Shown one piece after another: positions 50,624 through 64,000 of a stretch of 64,000 bases of DNA. This DNA is from Thiothrix litoralis (lineage in GTDB: Bacteria; Pseudomonadota; Gammaproteobacteria; Thiotrichales; Thiotrichaceae). Where the stretch lies: NCBI RefSeq assembly GCF_017901135.1, contig NZ_CP072801.1, positions 1,364,001-1,428,000 of the forward strand. The letters are read 5' to 3'. The notes under the pieces were generated by a model. The model made no database searches, was not told the DNA's origin, and worked only from the letters and a program-made list of their open reading frames with translations. A program made the position numbers and the translations under genes. Numbering within the stretch: the first letter of the stretch is position 1; every line of letters begins with the position of its first letter.

Positions 50624-52393
50624 TTACTTCTTCGGCGCGTAAATATCCGTGCAAGTCCCTTCTGCCACTTCCGCCGCAAAGTTCAGCGTCTCGGAAAGCG
50701 TCGGATGCGGATGGATAGTCAAGCCGATGTCATGCGCATCCGCACCCATTTCCAGCGCCAACACCGCCTCAGCAATCAGCTCACCGGCATTCTTACCCGC
50801 AATGCCCGCGCCAATCAGCCGCCCGGTTTCCTTGTCAAACAGCACTTTAGTAATGCCGTTGCTGGCATCCATCGACAAAGCCCGCCCACTTGCTGCCCAC
50901 GGGAACGCGCCTTTTTCATACGCAATCCCCTCAGCCTTGCACTGCTCTTCAGTCTTACCCATCCACGCCACTTCCGGGTTGGTGTAAGCCACCGATGGAA
51001 TGGTTTTCGCATCGAAATACGCCTTGTGCCCGGCAATGACTTCCGCCGCCACTTTGCCTTCGTGTGTCGCCTTGTGCGCCAGCATCGGTTGCCCCACGAT
51101 GTCGCCAATCGCGAAAATGTGCGGCACATTGGTACGCATCTGGTTATCCACCGGAATAAACCCGCGAGCGCCCGCGAAGACACCCGCCTTACCCGCGTCG
51201 ATCAGATCACCGTTGGGGCTGCGCCCAATCGCCACCAGCACCCGGTCAAAGGTATCCTTTTCAGGCGCACCCTTGCCTTCAAACGAACACACCAACCCTG
51301 CCGCCGTCGGCTCAATCGCCGTGACCTTGGTATTGAGGTAAATGGCTTCGTACTGGCCTTTGATCTTATTGTGCAAAGGCTTCACGATGTCGCGGTCAGC
51401 ACCGGGCATCAAACCGGGGGAAAGCTCCACCACCGTCACACTCGCGCCCAGCGCGTGGTAAACCGTAGCCATTTCCAGCCCGATAATGCCACCGCCAACC
51501 ACCAGCAAACGCTTGGGGATTTCCTGTAATTCCAACGCAGCGGTGGAATCCATCACACGCGGATCATCCCACGGAATAAACGGTAGCTTGGTAACACGCG
51601 AACCCGCCGCAATGATGCAGTTGGCAAACTTAACCGTTTGCTTGCTGCCGTCTGCCGCCTCCACCTCCAGCGTGTGCGCAGAGGTGAAACGACCATAACC
51701 CTGCACGATCTGCACCTTACGCTGCTTTGCCAGCCCTTTCAGACCCGTGGTCAACTTGCTGACTACATCGCTTTTGTGCGCCCGTACCGCAGCGAGGTCG
51801 ATGTCCGGCTCACCGAATTTCACCCCATGCTTGGCAAATTCCTTAGCCTCTTCAATCACCTCAGCGGTGTGCAGCAAGGCTTTGGACGGGATACAACCCA
51901 CGTTCAAGCACACCCCGCCGATATTAGGGTAACGCTCGATCAGCACCACTTTCTTGCCGAGATCAGCCGCGCGGAAAGCGGCGGTGTAGCCGCCGGGGCC
52001 AGAGCCTAGCACAACGAGTTCGGTTTCAATTGAAGAACCCCTCACCCCTAACCCCTCTCCCTCAAGGGGCGAGGGGAACGAAGAAGGAGACTCTTGCTCC
52101 CCCTCGCCCCTTGAGGGAGAGGGGGTTGGGGGGTGAGGGGTTTTCCCCTCTTCCGCCACTTCCAGCATCAACAACACCGACCCTTCCGACACCCGATCCC
52201 CCACCTTCACCAGCATCTGCTTGACAGTGCCAGCCAAGGGGCTAGGAATTTCCATCGAGGATTTGTCGGATTCAATGGTAATCAGCGAATCTTCCGCTTC
52301 GATCTTGAAACCAGCGTCGACCAGCACTTCGATGATTTCCACATCCTTGAAGCTACCAATGTCGGGGACTTTGACTTCGATTAGCGTGCTCAT
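50624..52393 (-). CDS. lpdA: Dihydrolipoamide dehydrogenase with N-terminal lipoyl domain (PDH E3)
   Basis: 589 residues. The N-terminal lipoyl domain (1-80) carries the lipoylation site ESDKSSME (Lys44) and is nearly identical to that of AceF. The E3 body starts at about 123: FAD motif [14 protein letters not shown], redox disulfide [11 protein letters not shown] (Cys162, Cys167), NAD motif [12 protein letters not shown] and C-terminal His-Glu in HPHPTLSE. The linker 85-120 ([15 protein letters not shown], then [12 protein letters not shown]) is translated from a palindromic repeat pair inserted in frame. It overlaps aceF by 4 nt and is the last gene of aceE-aceF-lpdA. Confidence 0.95.
52035..52145. 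repeat. Inverted pair of palindromic repeats inside lpdA
   Basis: Two inverted copies of the CCCCTCACCCCTAACCCC type element, each with a CCTCAAGGGG/CCCCTTGAGG stem, separated by about 25 bp. It lies within the lpdA linker codons 85-120 and keeps the frame. Same family as the repeats at 59136, 59548 and 63094. Confidence 0.8.
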
Positions 52394-58349: not shown

Positions 58350-59114
58350 TCAGTGTTTTCTCCTGAGTAGCAAAGTTGAGAACGTAACCAAAAGCAGTGA
58401 CAGCGCCAGCAACAGGGTTGCCAACACATTCACTTCGGGCGAAACACCGACCTTGACCATCGAAAACACCCGGATCGGCAGGATTTCAAAGCTGGGGCCG
58501 GTCACAAACGAGCTGATGATTACATCATCTAATGATAGGGTAAAGCTCAATAACCACCCCGCGACAATCGCCGGAAACACCAACGGGAAGATAATCAGGC
58601 GAAAAATACGGCTTTCACTCGCCCCCAAATCCTGCGCAGCCTCCAACAAATATTGATCGAAACCTTTGAGTTGCGCATACACCGTAATCACCACAAACGG
58701 CAGGCAAAAGGTGATGTGCGCAATCAGCAACGACCAGAAACCAAGCTGGATACCCAACGCAATAAAGATCACCAAAAAGGTAATCGCCAGCACAATATCT
58801 GGCGACATCATCACAATGAACAACAACCCGCTGGAGGTGGCCTTGAGCGGGAAACGGTAACGGTACAAGGCCAGCGCCATCAAGGTTCCGATAAGGGTTG
58901 CTGCCGTCGCCGCCAGCGTCGCGATTAGCAAGGAATTCAGGAAAGCCTGCGCCAACGCCTCATTTTCCCAGAGTTTGGCGTACCAATTGAGGGTGAAGCC
59001 TTTCCACTCATAACCGTATTTGGAAACGTTGAAGGAATTGATCACCAGAATCGCGATGGGCAGGTAGAGGTAGGCGAAGATGGCGGCGATAAAGCTCCAC
59101 TTTAGGATTTTCAT
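58350..59114 (-). CDS. potC: Spermidine/putrescine ABC transporter permease PotC
   Basis: 254 residues, six membrane helices, with the EAA loop LEAAQDLGASESRIFRLIIF that docks the ATPase. The N-terminus (LKWSFIAAIFAYLYLPIAIL) and NWYAKLWENEAL segment are typical of PotC. It overlaps the DUF559 gene by 4 nt, so the inserted gene is translationally coupled to it. Its normal partner potB lies about 4 kb upstream, beyond the inserted islet. Confidence 0.93.
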   Translation of the reverse strand: MKILKWSFIAAIFAYLYLPIAILVINSFNVSKYGYEWKGFTLNWYAKLWENEALAQAFLNSLLIATLAATAATLIGTLMALALYRYRFPLKATSSGLLFIVMMSPDIVLAITFLVIFIALGIQLGFWSLLIAHITFCLPFVVITVYAQLKGFDQYLLEAAQDLGASESRIFRLIIFPLVFPAIVAGWLLSFTLSLDDVIISSFVTGPSFEILPIRVFSMVKVGVSPEVNVLATLLLALSLLLVTFSTLLLRRKH

Positions 59115-59542
59115 TGGGTTTGCTCCTGCGGAGTTCCCCTCACCCCTAGCCCCTCTCCCTCAAGGGGAGAGGGGGATAAGAGGAGGTAGTTTTGGATGGT
59201 TGCGGTAACAGTTTGGAGATTTTTTTCTACTTGGGTGGCGGTGAAACGGAGGACGGTGTAACCACAGACTTCTAGGAGGTGTTGGCGTTCTTGGTCGCGT
59301 TCTACTTGGGTGGCGTGGATTGATCCATCTACTTCGACGATCAGGTTTTTTTCGGCGCAGAAGAAATCAGCGACGAAACAGCCGATAGGTTGTTGGCGGC
59401 GGAATTTGAATCCGGCGATTCGGCGATTGCGCAGGGCTTGCCAGAGGATGCCTTCGCTGGGCGTTGGCGCTTTGCGAAAGTCGCGGGCGCAGGCGTGCAT
59501 TTGGGCGTTGAGTTCGGGGGTGATGACTAGGCGTTCTTTCAT
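59111..59542 (-). CDS. DUF559 endonuclease-like protein
   Basis: 143 residues. DUF559 core: ARDFRKAPTPSEGILWQALR, then FRRQQPIGCFVADFFCAEKN, LIVEVDGSIHATQVERDQER and GYTVLRFTATQVEKNL, a restriction-endonuclease-like (Vsr-type) fold with the acidic residues of the PD-(D/E)xK plan (VADF, EVDG). The last ~20 residues ([14 protein letters not shown]) are translated from the palindromic repeat at 59136. It lies between the NACHT gene and potC, with a repeat on both sides. A nicking or nuclease role is inferred only. Confidence 0.8.
   Translation of the reverse strand: MKERLVITPELNAQMHACARDFRKAPTPSEGILWQALRNRRIAGFKFRRQQPIGCFVADFFCAEKNLIVEVDGSIHATQVERDQERQHLLEVCGYTVLRFTATQVEKNLQTVTATIQNYLLLSPSPLEGEGLGVRGTPQEQTQ
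59136..59175. repeat. Palindromic repeat at the 3' end of the DUF559 gene
   Basis: CCCCTCACCCCTAGCCCC then TCTCCCTCAAGGGGAGAGGG. Same family as the copies at 59548 (same orientation), 63094 (opposite) and the pair in lpdA. Confidence 0.8.
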
Positions 59543-59547
59543 GGGCG

Positions 59548-59590
59548 GAACCCCTCACCCCAACCCCTCTCCCTCAAGGGGCGAGGGGCT
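59548..59590. repeat. Palindromic repeat between the DUF559 and NACHT genes
   Basis: AACCCCTCACCCCAACCCCT then CTCCCTCAAGGGGCGAGGGG. It overlaps no strong coding signal and separates the two accessory genes. Confidence 0.8.
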
Positions 59591-59618
59591 AAGAAAATAC
59601 GGCGGGTAGTATTGGTTT

Positions 59619-62600
59619 TCATGGGCGGGTGGCTGCTCCGCCGATGCCTGCGATGAAGGCTTTGATGAAAGCACTGATGGGGTCTTCTCCGGTAGCCATA
59701 TCGCCGATCAACGAAGTTAAAGCGCCAATACCACCGTTTTGGATGCGTTGCATTAATCCCGGATTTTCTGTTTCTAGCGTTCTTGCTGCGTCAATACCGC
59801 TATTTTCTGGATTCTCGGTTATTTGGGATTGTTGGTGTTGACTCCATGCTTGTAGAAAAGTACGCAATGCGGCTATGTCTTCAGCACTTAAAACAGGCTG
59901 ATTATTTCCGACATTGACTGTACCGTGATTATCACCGATAACACCTGCTGTTACGGGCGCATTAAAGTTAAATATCTTGTTACTCATTTTTGTTTCCTGA
60001 ATAATAGGTAGAAATTTTATGTTACTGGCTTGATTAAACCACTGATAAGAATAGTGACCATGACGCTTTTGTATTTTACATATTGAATCAAACTTATCAT
60101 AATCAGGCATTAATTTTACAAGTCTAGGCAATACATCAAGAGTTGCCATTTTCTTTATCTTGCTCAATGCGTCACTTTTCTCATCCTGAGAATGATCAAT
60201 ATCATCAGACTCCAAAATAGAAAAAAGAACGCCAATATTAATACAGCTCTCAAAATCACTCACTTCATCATCAGTATAATTTGAATCTTCATTTTCTTTT
60301 TTACATTTAAGATTGAAGTCAAAAATGGCATCATTAATTTTATTATCATTTAATTTTTCATTAATTTTACTTAAAGCACTCATAGATAACCAATTATTGC
60401 CATCGTCCCCGTCCATAACTCTAATCAACTCATCAATAATCTTAGGTTTATCTTCAGCAATAACAGGATTTCTCCATAACATTTCAACTATTATTTTTTT
60501 AATCTTTTCATTCTCATGACTCAATGATGAAACAATAAACTCTTCTGAATATTGATCATCCGCTTGCATCTCATTAACCAGATCATACACCCATGAAATC
60601 CCACCTATGCTAGAAGAAAAAAGATTATCAAATACGGCTTTTACAGCAAGTGGATGAGAAATTTTCCCTAAAGCTATTATAACACTCGATTTTACTTCAT
60701 CATGATTATCATTTAATTTCTCGACAAGAAATTTAATTGTATTTGCTGAACCAATTCTTCCTAATGCTTCAGCAGAAGCGCTTCTAATCCTCCATTCTTT
60801 TTCATTAAAAACACTAACAACCAAGGGCGCTGATGCAGAGTTTCTTATATACCCCAAAGCAGTGATACAATTAATCTGTTTAAGAAAAGATGACAAGAAA
60901 ATTGAATGGAAATTTCTCAAAAAGCGCAAACTCCTCCAATTATTATTACAAAAATCAAAAAATGTCCGTAAAAAAATATTTCTGGTAAGTAGTCTGCTTC
61001 TTCTTAATTTGGCCTCAATCCGTTTTCTTGCATACTCAGGAGCATTCTTCCTTAAAAAAAGAGCAGCATACTCAATATCATGATTGTTTCTATTAAAAAT
61101 ATACTTCAATAGCGGTTCTATCGCTCTTCTATTACTGCTCTTCTCCAGCATTCTACATGCAGTAGACCGTACATCTTTGTCTGCATCAATAAGAAGATCA
61201 ATAAGTACATTAGATGATCGCTCAGAATTAATATTTCCGATTGCTTGAGTAACAGCCTCTCTCAAATAATTATTGGCATCACTCTCTCTTAACGCATTCA
61301 GTAGTAAGGAAAAATCTTTCTCATCCGAAACACTTCTAATATACATAAGAGCACACCCTATTTCATGTCGATGACCGACTCCCATCAACACAAAATCAAT
61401 TAAAGGCTTAATATATTTCAGATCAAATAATCCATTTATGGCATATCTCAGTTTTTCTCTATCATCTATTTCATTGCTTATTGATTTTTCTTTTAAAATA
61501 TTAGAGAAATAATTCAAAGATATTAGGCACTTAACATTAGTCAACTGTTCTGCATAATCAAACCAATCAAAATGAGCTAATTTAACACCTTTATCACTTT
61601 CCAGGAAATCGACTAAGCACTTCATCAAAAATTCAGTTTTATTAAACTTCAATATTGAGTGCAATTCAGTCATAGCCACATCATTATTCATCAATAAACT
61701 TTTAACCAAACTAAATGATGACTCTTGAAACTTGTAATTAACCGCTCCCGAAATCCTTGATGCCAAAATGAAATCAACAAGAAACGCTACTTGTAGAAAA
61801 CGTTTAATTCGACTTTTATCAGGTATAATCCCCGCTAATACCAGCAATGATTCTGTCCATTTAATAGGATTCAAATAATGAACGCAAAGTTGGTCATCCG
61901 TCAATTCATCAAAATGGCGTAACAACCATTCAGCAGCATAATATTCTTGAAACGCTTGATGAATGAACTCGATCTTTCCATGATCAGCAGCAGGCTGAAG
62001 CAAATGAAAATTTAACGCATCAGACAGCCATTGCTTTGCCTTGCTTGCCCCATTTGTTTCGCCACGCTCCCCAAATCGCTTTTCTAGCCATTTTTCAGCA
62101 TCAGCCAATGGCACTTGTAACCAGAGATTCTTGCCATCACCATCCGCGTGCATCATCAAAAATGCCACTTCTTGCAAGATTTCATCGCAGAAATCAAAGA
62201 AAGTATTTTCGCGTGTCGTTACCGTCCCACTGGGTTTGTGTTTCGCATACTCATCATGTGTAAATCGCCGAAACAACTCACCCTGATTTTGTGGAATAGC
62301 ATGTGATTTTTGATAAACACTGCACAACATATTCAGCAATAACGGACGTTCAGTGAAGTCATGCAAACGGTCTGGCAGATCATCCAACAATTGACGCGCC
62401 GCCGACTCGCTCCCTAAACGATTGGTAGCCAATGCTCTTGCCTGAGAGTCATTCAATGGCAACAAATGCAGCTTCGTTTCAATTCCAAAATCGGTAACAC
62501 TCTCCCGACTGCTAACAATCATCGGTGTATCAATAAACTGCTTCCTAAAATCTGCCAGCCTTACGCTGCTCGGCATTTCATTTAAGCCATCCAATAACAA

Positions 62601-63077
62601 CAACAGCCGCCTATCTCGCAACAAAACACGCACCTGCTGCTCACTCGCAATACCCGCTAACTCCAACTGCTCCAGAATCAGTTTAAGCAAAGTAACGTCA
62701 TGACCATCAAACGCATCTTTAGTCCCAAGCCGCCGCAATTCCAGCAAAACAGGAATCGGTCGAGACTGATCACGTAAACCCGCGCCAGCCTCCTCCCGCA
62801 ATAAACGCTTAAATGCAGTAGACTTACCCGCCCCCGGCTTCCCCAATAACAACACATGCCCAGCCGCGTATTCACGCAAACCAACCATCACATCGACGCT
62901 TTTGCGTTTCTCAGATAAACGAGCACGCCCATCAAAATCATCATCAGCCTGTCGCTCTTTATCCTCAATTTCCGCACGCAACGGCAAATCGACTGATGTA
63001 GAGACATATCCCGCATCAGCCGAAGCATCAATCCGCTGCAAAACAGCATTCAAATAAGGAGCAAAATCAAACTCCAT
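59619..63077 (-). CDS. NACHT-family STAND NTPase with HEAT-like repeats, putative defence sensor
   Basis: 1152 residues from the ATG at 63077; the frame opens at 63143 but the first 22 codons are a palindromic repeat. A short N-terminal region (1-70) precedes a NACHT module with Walker A GKPGAGKST (79-87), Walker B LLLLLDGLNEMP (158-169), sensor Arg191 in IVSSRES, and the winged-helix signature FIHQAFQEYYAAEWLL near 375-390. A long helical region with HEAT-like repeats follows (SVIIALGKISHPLAVKAVF and similar). The C-terminal tail (about 1030 on) holds KIFNFNAPVTAGVIGDNHGT. Bacterial NACHT proteins of this plan act in anti-phage immunity. The repeat region is markedly AT-rich while the NACHT end is closer to host composition. 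It splits the pot operon. Confidence 0.82.
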   Translation of the reverse strand: MEFDFAPYLNAVLQRIDASADAGYVSTSVDLPLRAEIEDKERQADDDFDGRARLSEKRKSVDVMVGLREYAAGHVLLLGKPGAGKSTAFKRLLREEAGAGLRDQSRPIPVLLELRRLGTKDAFDGHDVTLLKLILEQLELAGIASEQQVRVLLRDRRLLLLLDGLNEMPSSVRLADFRKQFIDTPMIVSSRESVTDFGIETKLHLLPLNDSQARALATNRLGSESAARQLLDDLPDRLHDFTERPLLLNMLCSVYQKSHAIPQNQGELFRRFTHDEYAKHKPSGTVTTRENTFFDFCDEILQEVAFLMMHADGDGKNLWLQVPLADAEKWLEKRFGERGETNGASKAKQWLSDALNFHLLQPAADHGKIEFIHQAFQEYYAAEWLLRHFDELTDDQLCVHYLNPIKWTESLLVLAGIIPDKSRIKRFLQVAFLVDFILASRISGAVNYKFQESSFSLVKSLLMNNDVAMTELHSILKFNKTEFLMKCLVDFLESDKGVKLAHFDWFDYAEQLTNVKCLISLNYFSNILKEKSISNEIDDREKLRYAINGLFDLKYIKPLIDFVLMGVGHRHEIGCALMYIRSVSDEKDFSLLLNALRESDANNYLREAVTQAIGNINSERSSNVLIDLLIDADKDVRSTACRMLEKSSNRRAIEPLLKYIFNRNNHDIEYAALFLRKNAPEYARKRIEAKLRRSRLLTRNIFLRTFFDFCNNNWRSLRFLRNFHSIFLSSFLKQINCITALGYIRNSASAPLVVSVFNEKEWRIRSASAEALGRIGSANTIKFLVEKLNDNHDEVKSSVIIALGKISHPLAVKAVFDNLFSSSIGGISWVYDLVNEMQADDQYSEEFIVSSLSHENEKIKKIIVEMLWRNPVIAEDKPKIIDELIRVMDGDDGNNWLSMSALSKINEKLNDNKINDAIFDFNLKCKKENEDSNYTDDEVSDFESCINIGVLFSILESDDIDHSQDEKSDALSKIKKMATLDVLPRLVKLMPDYDKFDSICKIQKRHGHYSYQWFNQASNIKFLPIIQETKMSNKIFNFNAPVTAGVIGDNHGTVNVGNNQPVLSAEDIAALRTFLQAWSQHQQSQITENPENSGIDAARTLETENPGLMQRIQNGGIGALTSLIGDMATGEDPISAFIKAFIAGIGGAATRP

Positions 63078-63093
63078 AACAGCCCATTCTCTT

Positions 63094-63137
63094 ATCCCCC
63101 TCTCCCCTTGAGGGAGAGGGGCTAGGGGTGAGGGGTT
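63094..63137. repeat. Palindromic repeat at the 5' side of the NACHT gene
   Basis: CCCCCTCTCCCCTTGAGGGA then GAGGGGCTAGGGGTGAGGGG, inverted relative to the copy at 59548. The two thus bracket the NACHT gene. Confidence 0.8.
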
Positions 63138-63139
63138 CT

Positions 63140-64000
63140 TCAAATTCCATCATCATCCAACCCCCCTTGTCGGTTAATCCGCCGATTTGCCAAGAAATAC
63201 AGCCACAGCAACACCGCCATGATCCCAATCAGTGCCACGCTAAACGCCGCCCCAAACGGCCAATCCCGCACCACCAAAAACTGGTTCTTAATAATATTTC
63301 CCAGCAGCAGATTCTTCGCGCCACCCAGCAAATCCGCCACGTAAAACATCCCCATCGCGGGCAGAAACACCATCAAACTTCCCGCAATAATCCCCGGCAT
63401 AGTCAGCGGCACAATGATCAGCCGGAAGCGCTGCCAAAACCCCGCCCCCAAATCATGCGCGGCCTCCAGCAACGTGCCATCCAGCTTGCCGAAACTCGAC
63501 ACCAGCGGCAGCACCATGAACGGCAACAGCACATACACCAGCCCGAAAATCACCGCAAACGGCGTATACAACAACTGCACCGGCTCATCCACCAAGCCCG
63601 AAGCCAGCAACAAGCTATTCACCAGCCCCTTGTTCCCCAAGATCAGCTTGATCGCATACGTGCGGATCAAGCTATTCGTCCAGAACGGCACAATCATCAA
63701 AAACAGCAGCAAACCACGCCACATTCCTGGCAATTTCGCCACGATGTACGCAAACGGATAGCCCAGCAGCAAACAAATCGCCGTGGTCAGCGTAGACAAC
63801 CACAAGCTGTGCCAAAACACTTCGGCATACAACGGCTCCAGCAAACGCCCCCAGGAATCCAGCGTCAGCGGCCACACCGCCAAATGCTGCGGGTCAGGCG
63901 ACATTACGCTGGTCAGCAACACCAACACATGCGGAACCAGCACAAACAACCCCAACCACACCACGGTCAGCACAATCACAAAGCGGCGGAAATTTATCAC
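63140..64000 (-). CDS. potB: Spermidine/putrescine ABC transporter permease PotB
   Basis: 286 residues with six membrane helices. The EAA loop is LLEAAHDLGAGFWQRFRLII, and conserved PFWTNSLIRTYAIKLILGNK and MFYVADLLGGAKNLLLGNII segments are diagnostic of PotB. The start is a GTG that coincides with the window edge (64000), so an upstream extension cannot be excluded, but the length is normal. The potA ATPase is expected just outside the window. Its normal downstream partner, potC, is displaced by the NACHT/DUF559 islet. Confidence 0.93.
   Translation of the reverse strand: MINFRRFVIVLTVVWLGLFVLVPHVLVLLTSVMSPDPQHLAVWPLTLDSWGRLLEPLYAEVFWHSLWLSTLTTAICLLLGYPFAYIVAKLPGMWRGLLLFLMIVPFWTNSLIRTYAIKLILGNKGLVNSLLLASGLVDEPVQLLYTPFAVIFGLVYVLLPFMVLPLVSSFGKLDGTLLEAAHDLGAGFWQRFRLIIVPLTMPGIIAGSLMVFLPAMGMFYVADLLGGAKNLLLGNIIKNQFLVVRDWPFGAAFSVALIGIMAVLLWLYFLANRRINRQGGLDDDGI

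What the first reader, a model, noticed from the sequence alone, without database searches (positions are those of the whole stretch)
59111..63137. NACHT plus DUF559 islet inserted between potB and potC
potB and potC are normally adjacent. Here they are about 4 kb apart, with a NACHT-HEAT protein and a DUF559 endonuclease-like protein on the same strand between them. The DUF559 frame overlaps potC by 4 nt, so the islet is wired into the operon rather than merely dropped in. A NACHT sensor paired with a small PD-(D/E)xK-like protein under polyamine-operon control is not a system I recognise.
Basis: partly seen in the sequence, partly recalled or inferred. Interest (0 to 1): 0.72.

Follow-up and report, generated by a model that had tools for sequence, protein, structure and literature searches.

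The report
Movable immune gene pair inside operons
A bacterial gene that looks like an immune sensor and a small gene that looks like a DNA-cutting enzyme sit together, bracketed by repeats, inside a nutrient-transport operon, and two relatives carry the same pair inside a different operon, so it looks like a small mobile defence cassette that slips between working genes without breaking them.

Summary
potB and potC are 4 kb apart, separated by an intact NACHT-HEAT gene (59619-63077) and an intact DUF559 gene (59111-59542), co-directional; DUF559 overlaps potC by ATGA. In 12 of 15 other same-genus genomes, including sister G005, potB and potC adjoin (empty site), so the insertion looks derived and recent. 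The pairing recurs: close relatives of this NACHT occur in 2 of the 15 (G006, G010). In both, a DUF559 about 75% identical follows, and the pair sits in another operon (dabA1-dabB2, inorganic carbon uptake); 7 genomes have that site empty and G011 keeps a remnant (NACHT mostly deleted, DUF559 intact). Both insertions are bracketed by inverted halves of a REPIN-like palindromic repeat. Control by polyamines is not a shared feature. The DUF559 model resembles the homing endonuclease I-Bth0305I. DUF559 genes in this genus occupy many loci, 27 of 37 near conflict genes, and this DUF559 is less diverged at silent sites than its host locus. I read the islet as a repeat-bracketed mobile defence cassette: NACHT is the cargo, and DUF559 is more likely a mobility or retention nuclease than the NACHT effector. 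Function is untested.

The parts
63140..64000 (-). potB, upstream host gene
63096..63135 (-). left repeat unit (CCCCTCACCCC plus hairpin), outer boundary of the islet
59619..63077 (-). NACHT-HEAT STAND NTPase, 1152 aa, Walker A GKPGAGKST and Walker B LLLLDGLNE present; last 123 aa without a match in the plasmid collection
59539..59622 (-). 27-codon leader frame through the middle repeat, ATGA overlaps at both ends; resembles the N-terminal extension of the G010 DUF559 frame
   Evidence: read; G010 frame
59551..59588 (-). middle repeat unit, same orientation as the right one
   Evidence: G000:C1:1423552-1423573
59111..59542 (-). DUF559 Vsr-like nuclease, 143 aa; C-terminus runs through the right repeat
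59136..59175 (-). right repeat unit, inverted relative to the left one
59115..59135 (-). tail between right repeat and potC with an SD-like GCAGGAG; 12 of its first 16 nt as in the flank of the dab-site copies
58350..59114 (-). potC, downstream host gene, ATGA overlap with DUF559

Best explanation
The islet is a small mobile defence cassette: a STAND/NACHT-HEAT gene plus a Vsr-like DUF559 nuclease gene, bracketed by inverted halves of a REPIN-like palindromic repeat, that inserts at gene-gene junctions of housekeeping operons. Insertion keeps downstream translation going because the cassette's frames run through its end repeat and overlap the next host start codon. NACHT most likely acts as a phage sensor that triggers its own C-terminal effector region. 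DUF559 most likely serves mobility or retention (a homing-type or repeat-processing endonuclease) rather than being the NACHT effector. Shown: anatomy, empty sites, two different insertion sites, recurrence of the pair, inverted repeat brackets, low dN/dS of DUF559, Vsr/homing-like fold (model). Inferred: defence activity, DNA cleavage, DUF559-driven movement, operon-driven expression.
For: Empty pot site in 12 of 15 other genus genomes, including sister G005 (potC pS 0.086 to the window). Same pair at dabA1-dabB2 in G006 and G010, remnant in G011, empty in 7 of the 10 genomes with that dabB2. In G006 and G010 the dab boundary is clean: GCCGTT(A/T)|CCCCTCACC and GGTGAGGGG|TAC(G/A)CCGGAGG against empty GCCGTTTC(A/C)CCGGAGG. 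The four pair-type DUF559s form one clade, 100/99, among 37 rows. Pairwise DUF559 dN/dS 0.19-0.25. DUF559 pS 0.25-0.30 among G006/G010/G011, against potC 0.56-0.63 and DabB2 0.55-0.57: younger, or exchanged at the same site. Foldseek on the DUF559 model: 3hrl (E 1.8e-6), then the I-Bth0305I homing endonuclease domain 3r3p (E 3.8e-4, TMt 0.77); Vsr 1vsr is weaker, rank 10 (E 0.013). 6 of 41 DUF559s lie within 6 kb of a NACHT over cut-off (0.54 expected), all 6 co-directional and downstream. The promoter scan shows no site on the NACHT strand ahead of its start.
Against: The same repeat units occur alone and between ordinary genes, so brackets alone do not prove that the cassette moves by them. 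The pair-type DUF559s themselves scored negative in the test for inverted repeats within 350 bp of DUF559 (longest 8-10 nt), because their left repeat lies beyond NACHT or NACHT's remnant. No clear target-site duplication; no transposase in the islet; at the pot site there are extra nucleotides outside both repeats. DUF559 is also consistent with an accessory nuclease of defence operons. NACHT and DUF559 silent divergence differ (NACHT core pS 0.63, DUF559 0.27 for G006-G010), so they have not always travelled together. The 6 NACHT-near DUF559s are not 6 independent events: G006 and G010 share a site, and the TIR-CHAT-type loci of G004 and G009 look alike. No defence or cleavage data.
Confidence: 0.45

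Rival explanations
1. Sensor-effector pair: NACHT senses phage and DUF559 is its nuclease effector (or an accessory cutting modified or mismatched phage DNA), and the two are selected as one operon.
For: Same order and strand in all three intact pairs; all 6 NACHT-near DUF559s are downstream and co-directional; DUF559 follows NACHT by coupled frames; E30, D59, E70, D72 and H76 are invariant in the four DUF559s aligned. The window NACHT lacks the C-terminal segment of its relatives, so an external effector could replace it.
Against: G006 and G010 NACHTs have a C-terminal segment matching positions 352-571 of the retron Ec67 fusion family (E 3e-8 and 2e-9, below that family's cut-off), yet keep DUF559; G011 keeps an intact DUF559 after losing most of NACHT; the one plasmid relative (Calothrix, 36% over 40%) has no neighbour annotated as DUF559 among the 7 features shown, two of them hypothetical, one of which I translated and judged by eye; DUF559 relatives sit on the opposite strand inside a restriction and a BREX operon.
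Confidence: 0.27
2. Hot-spot chance: repeat units at operon junctions are recombination hot spots; NACHT and DUF559 each arrived there by repeat-repeat recombination, and DUF559 is repeat-associated debris.
For: Repeats are dispersed (25 halves in G000); 10 of 37 distinct DUF559 loci have exact inverted repeats of 12 nt or more within 350 bp on both sides (2.4% of random placements), of differing sequence; G000 carries DUF559s of two clades, both beside repeats.
Against: The same NACHT family is paired with the same DUF559 clade at two unrelated junctions; frames intact; dN/dS about 0.2 argues against debris.
Confidence: 0.2
3. Regulatory integration: the pair is placed in the pot operon to be controlled with polyamine transport.
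For: Co-directional, overlapping frames, no promoter-like site before NACHT on its strand.
Against: The same pair sits in a carbon-uptake operon elsewhere; sister genomes lack it at pot.
Confidence: 0.04

Closest known systems
Bacterial NACHT / STAND antiphage proteins (bNACHT, Avs; EruA NF058535)
   Same: NACHT NTPase core and repeat-rich C-terminal half; best NCBIfam match is EruA (E 5.9e-11, 41.3 bits)
   Different: Far below EruA's cut-off of 1000 bits; best stretch 189 residues; followed by DUF559; flanked by pot genes here and dab genes in relatives
Vsr / DUF559 endonucleases (E. coli Vsr, Caulobacter VsrA, NGO0050 3hrl)
   Same: DUF559 profile E 2.1e-35; 3hrl by fold E 1.8e-6 and by sequence E 1.4e-23
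   Different: No methyltransferase gene in the islet (the genome was not searched for one); partner is a NACHT gene; C-terminus encoded by a repeat
EDxHD homing endonucleases (I-Bth0305I)
   Same: Foldseek ranks 2 and 3, TMt 0.77-0.78; small nuclease gene found at several sites
   Different: No intron or intein seen; sits at more than one host junction; cleavage site unknown; EDxHD motif itself not tested
REPINs / REP-RAYT systems
   Same: Palindromic halves, in G000 often as inverted doublets 72-77 bp apart, dispersed, also flanking genes
   Different: Y1 transposase counts run opposite to repeat counts (Spearman -0.63); no GTAG tag seen by eye; 0-106 halves per genome

Membership tests
NACHT/STAND NTPase | NACHT domain over Pfam cut-off | tested here: met
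   35.7 bits against 26.7
NACHT/STAND NTPase | Walker A and B motifs intact | tested here: met
   GKPGAGKST and LLLLDGLNE; all but A83 of the former invariant in A1; motif names recalled
EruA | score over NF058535 cut-off | tested here: not met
   41.3 bits against 1000
NACHT/STAND antiphage | phage protection | not testable with these tools
   no wet test
DUF559 / Vsr-like nuclease | DUF559 profile over cut-off | tested here: met
   121.3 bits against 20.6
DUF559 / Vsr-like nuclease | Vsr-like fold | tested here: met
   model pLDDT 73; 3hrl and 3r3p at E under 0.001; 1vsr itself only E 0.013, rank 10
DUF559 / Vsr-like nuclease | endonuclease activity | not testable with these tools
   E30/D59/E70/D72/H76 invariant in four sequences; mapping onto Vsr catalytic residues not tested
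Homing endonuclease | insertion at a precise site that is intact in relatives | tested here: met
   dab site in G006 and G010; less exact at the pot site, extra nt outside both repeats, and altered in G011
Homing endonuclease | cuts the empty allele and is copied in | not testable with these tools
   needs an enzyme assay
Homing endonuclease | co-conversion gradient beside the insertion | tested here: inconclusive
   DUF559 more alike than DabB2, no clear gradient into DabB2
REPIN/RAYT | Y1 (RAYT-type) transposase in the genomes that carry the repeats | tested here: not met
   six genomes without a Y1_Tnp match (G001, G007, G010, G012, G014, G015) carry 27-105 halves; G003 and G009 with 10 and 13 matches carry none; 8 genomes have both
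REPIN/RAYT | two palindromic halves in inverted order with a short spacer | tested here: met
   six doublets 72-77 bp apart in G000

The most novel reading that the evidence does not exclude
The pair-type DUF559 is a Vsr-like endonuclease that recognises REP-like palindromes and drives both their spread and the movement of repeat-bracketed cargo: a RAYT-like role played by an unrelated nuclease, here carrying an immune receptor into operon junctions with a portable ribosome-binding tail. Hints: the three genomes with most repeat halves (106, 105, 87; next 47) are exactly the dab-site carriers, though the fourth carrier G000 has only 25; Y1 transposases run opposite to repeats; the pot copy keeps a tail 12 of 16 nt identical to the dab copies' flank (13 of 17 with the last repeat base; 4 of 127,966 window 17-mers match as well, one of them the query itself).
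Probability: 0.18. Interest if true: 0.85.

Novelty: new variant of a known kind. Interest (0 to 1): 0.62.

Why it matters
If right, it is a concrete case of an immune receptor gene moving as a two-gene, repeat-bracketed unit into housekeeping operons, where searches that rely on defence islands would miss it. It makes two open questions testable: what the DUF559 genes beside defence systems do, and what spreads REP-like repeats in genomes without a RAYT-type transposase.

Tried and rejected
Single-protein scan of genome contigs with NACHT found nothing; repeated with alignment A3 it found two loci, the G006 and G010 contigs by their lengths. Both scans rest on short peptide patterns and can miss relatives. 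A first repeat pattern had a wrong spacer and found nothing. Class-wide profile search: 1 of 369 sampled genomes, own only; G006 and G010 were evidently not in that sample, and in the rows shown at most 5 candidates a genome were scored. Plasmid search: one Calothrix relative, no neighbour annotated as DUF559; its next gene shares only FNFNAPV with the NACHT C-terminus (6 of 7 residues), so I do not claim homology. NACHT C-terminus in plasmids: no match. The AlphaFold model of NACHT is too poor to use (pLDDT 44.7). Sequence search of solved structures with the NACHT alignment finds mainly designed alphaRep and other HEAT-like repeat chains, which says nothing on function. RAYT as mobiliser of the repeats: disfavoured for this genus. 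Polyamine control: disfavoured as a shared feature. Co-conversion gradient: not seen. DUF559 as debris: disfavoured by dN/dS. Repeat counts against carriers of the pair: Mann-Whitney P 0.023, but 16 genomes only, G006 and G010 weakly joined as sisters (87/81) and G000 low (25), so a hint only; repeat count against number of DUF559 hits: Spearman 0.40, P 0.13, not significant. Promoter and terminator scans of the islet gave no clear excess over shuffles (12 against 9.8; 4 against 4.4). Scripts 41 and 66 ended with an error; I used only lines printed before it, and repeated one search's step.
Full report
What is there. The islet is real. On the minus strand the order is potB (stop at 63140), left repeat (63096-63135), NACHT-HEAT gene (ATG 63077, stop 59619, 1152 aa), a 27-codon leader frame holding the middle repeat (59539-59622), DUF559 (59111-59542), whose C-terminus is encoded by the right repeat (59136-59175), then potC. 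ATGA overlaps join NACHT to leader, leader to DUF559 and DUF559 to potC (read). Both genes are open throughout. The middle of NACHT is AT-rich (G+C 0.29-0.36 in windows from about 59750 to 62000, against about 0.50-0.56 in most windows outside the islet).

Empty sites. G000 is the window's genome. In 12 of the 15 other same-genus genomes potB and potC adjoin; in G003, G011 and G015 potB is not next to potC. G005, sister to G000 in a potC+potD tree (100/100) with potC pS 0.086, is empty, so the insertion looks derived and recent.

Recurrence. A genus search with the NACHT protein at E 1e-5 matches 7 of 16 genomes, own included, but outside G006 and G010 the other matches are short NACHT or HEAT stretches; strong relatives are in G010 (36% over residues 57-1021) and G006 (48% over residues 6-458). 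At E 1e-30, 3 of 63 family genomes match: own, G006 and G010. In a class sample 1 of 369 genomes matches, own only. In the collection of 84,980 species two loci were found, whose contig lengths equal those of the G010 and G006 contigs; one is titled Thiothrix sp. UBA5583. In both relatives a DUF559 gene about 75% identical to the window's follows on the same strand, and the pair lies between dabA1 and dabB2, genes of an inorganic-carbon transporter (Pfam DabA and Proton_antipo for G010; G006 by likeness). Ten genomes have that dabB2 (79% or more): two are occupied, one (G011) holds a remnant and seven are empty. In G011 one frame of 257 codons joins the first about 70 codons of a NACHT-like start, and a dozen that resemble the relatives' C-terminal end, to an intact DUF559.

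Boundaries. At the dab site empty alleles of four genomes read GCCGTTTC(A/C)CCGGAGG; G006 and G010 read GCCGTT(A/T) then CCCCTCACC, and GGTGAGGGG then TAC(G/A)CCGGAGG: a clean insertion with the repeats at its edges. In G011 both edges are altered. In G010 the DUF559 frame runs through the right repeat into what look like the last codons of dabA1 and overlaps dabB2 (read). At the pot site the edges are the same repeats, but with extra nucleotides outside them. Of the 16 nt outside the right repeat, 12 match G010 and 12 match G006 (13 of 17 with the last repeat base); 4 of 127,966 window 17-mers match as well, one of them the query itself. This suggests, without proving, that the pot copy came from a dab-type copy and brought along a tail that now gives potC an SD-like sequence. 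An SD-like constraint could create part of this likeness.

The repeats. The pattern CCCTCACCCC-N(1-8)-CCCTCTCCC occurs 25 times in G000 and 0-106 times in the 16 genomes, with zero in the reversed-pattern control. In G000 six inverted doublets have a spacing of 72-77 bp, an architecture like that of REPINs (PMC3116915, search listing only; PMC3733652, passages read). Units also occur between what look like guaB and guaA, in a nif-like cluster and inside an E3-like gene of this window (gene names recalled from the sequences), so they are a dispersed family and not unique to the islet. Y1 transposases do not explain them: G003 and G009 have 10 and 13 Y1 matches and no halves, while G001, G007, G010, G012, G014 and G015 have none and 27-105 halves (Spearman -0.63, P 0.008). 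The remaining 8 genomes have both.

DUF559 in the genus. All 16 genomes have DUF559 (41 hits). I read surroundings for 37 distinct loci with a tblastn match longer than 250 bp; four short hits were dropped from these counts. In 27 of 37 a conflict-type gene lies within about 3 kb: NACHT-HEAT (3 plus the remnant), other STAND/TIR genes (6), SEFIR (1), HsdM (6), HsdR (1), BREX (2), MmeI (2), AAA_5/FGE operons (5). They were scanned with Pfam, save L097, L112 and L120, assigned by likeness to a scanned relative. One more is fused to a DUF1156 protein; nine have other neighbours (among them C11 peptidase, Fic, a Phd antitoxin). I have no control for how often random genes lie near defence genes; only the NACHT figure is tested: 6 of 41 within 6 kb of a NACHT over cut-off, 0.54 expected, P 1.5e-5 if independent (they are not fully so), all six co-directional with DUF559 downstream. 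Co-direction is common in general: 30 of the 35 loci with an upstream frame of 150 aa or more have it on the same strand. In three loci DUF559 lies opposite to both neighbours, two of them beside restriction or BREX genes. Ten of 37 have exact inverted repeats of 12 nt or more within 350 bp on both sides (2.4% of random placements; one search lists 39 rows, two of which duplicate others); none of the four pair-type loci is among the ten, their left repeat lying farther out. In the tree of 37, the four pair-type DUF559s form one clade (100/99), while 12 closely related rows (91/90) are spread over BREX, restriction, TIR-CHAT, SEFIR and C11 loci. DUF559 genes of this genus therefore appear to move.

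Selection and age. Pair-type DUF559 has pairwise dN/dS 0.19-0.25, G011 included, though this cannot date selection to after the loss of NACHT. Among G006, G010 and G011 its pS is 0.25-0.30, against 0.56-0.63 for potC and 0.55-0.57 for the adjoining dabB2, so DUF559 is younger than, or exchanged more recently than, the locus that holds it. The NACHT core of G006-G010 has pS 0.63. Similarity does not fall off smoothly into dabB2.

Proteins. The DUF559 model (pLDDT 73) matches 3hrl (E 1.8e-6), the I-Bth0305I homing endonuclease domain 3r3p (E 3.8e-4, TMt 0.77) and, more weakly, Vsr 1vsr (E 0.013). [quoted passage not shown] that the two are the same family is recalled. Caulobacter VsrA, a DUF559 protein, causes an SOS response in cells lacking a cytosine methyltransferase and is proposed to be a Vsr-type repair nuclease (PMC12907096, passages read). 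NACHT's nearest named family is EruA, far below its cut-off. The G006 and G010 NACHTs end in a segment matching positions 352-571 of the retron Ec67 RT-endonuclease fusion at E 3e-8 and 2e-9, below that family's cut-off; I take this to be its TOPRIM part (recalled). The window NACHT ends differently. So an effector inside NACHT is likely and DUF559 need not be it.

Literature. Searches: DUF559 (14 papers, all listed); NACHT with anti-phage and bNACHT (20 of 28 listed); DUF559 with REP, REPIN, inverted repeats and Thiothrix (15 of 52 listed); EruA with NACHT (0); I-Bth0305I, homing and very short patch repair (10 of 18 listed); STAND, REase and NACHT terms (11, all listed). No listed title or abstract start describes a NACHT-DUF559 pair or a DUF559-REP link. 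Term searches inside PMC7159879 and PMC10907252 found no DUF559. The library lacks most subscription journals, so this is no proof of absence.

Judgement. The pair is best read as a repeat-bracketed mobile cassette. Defence by NACHT is inferred from family. DUF559 as mobility or retention enzyme is favoured over effector by the G011 remnant, its spread over many loci, its lower silent divergence and its homing-type fold, but no activity has been shown.

Noticed in passing
window 52036-52140: A stand-alone REPIN-like doublet of the same repeat family lies inside the coding region of what looks like the dihydrolipoamide dehydrogenase (E3) gene, apparently in a linker (gene name recalled from sequence).
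   Followed up: partly
L055:5696-13645 (own genome): A second DUF559 (43% identical) sits in an operon with an AAA_5 ATPase, FGE-domain protein and a protease-like gene, flanked by a 27-nt exact inverted repeat.
   Followed up: partly
L111:7059-7448 and L114:7257-7682: DUF559 genes on the opposite strand between genes of a type I restriction operon and beside a BREX pglZ gene, as an insertion and not an operon member would be.
   Followed up: partly
L090, L091, L100, L125: NACHT or nSTAND1 proteins (some with TIR) ending in FGE-sulfatase domains, each next to a DUF559; retroelement-diversified lectin-type domains on STAND proteins are described in other bacteria (PMC10907252, passages).
   Followed up: no
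L053, L054, L088: Tandem dabBA-type inorganic-carbon transporter genes; the junction dabA1-dabB2 is the other landing site of the pair.
   Followed up: yes
G006, G010, G011: These three genomes have by far the most repeat halves (106, 105, 87; next 47) and are the carriers of the dab-site DUF559.
   Followed up: partly
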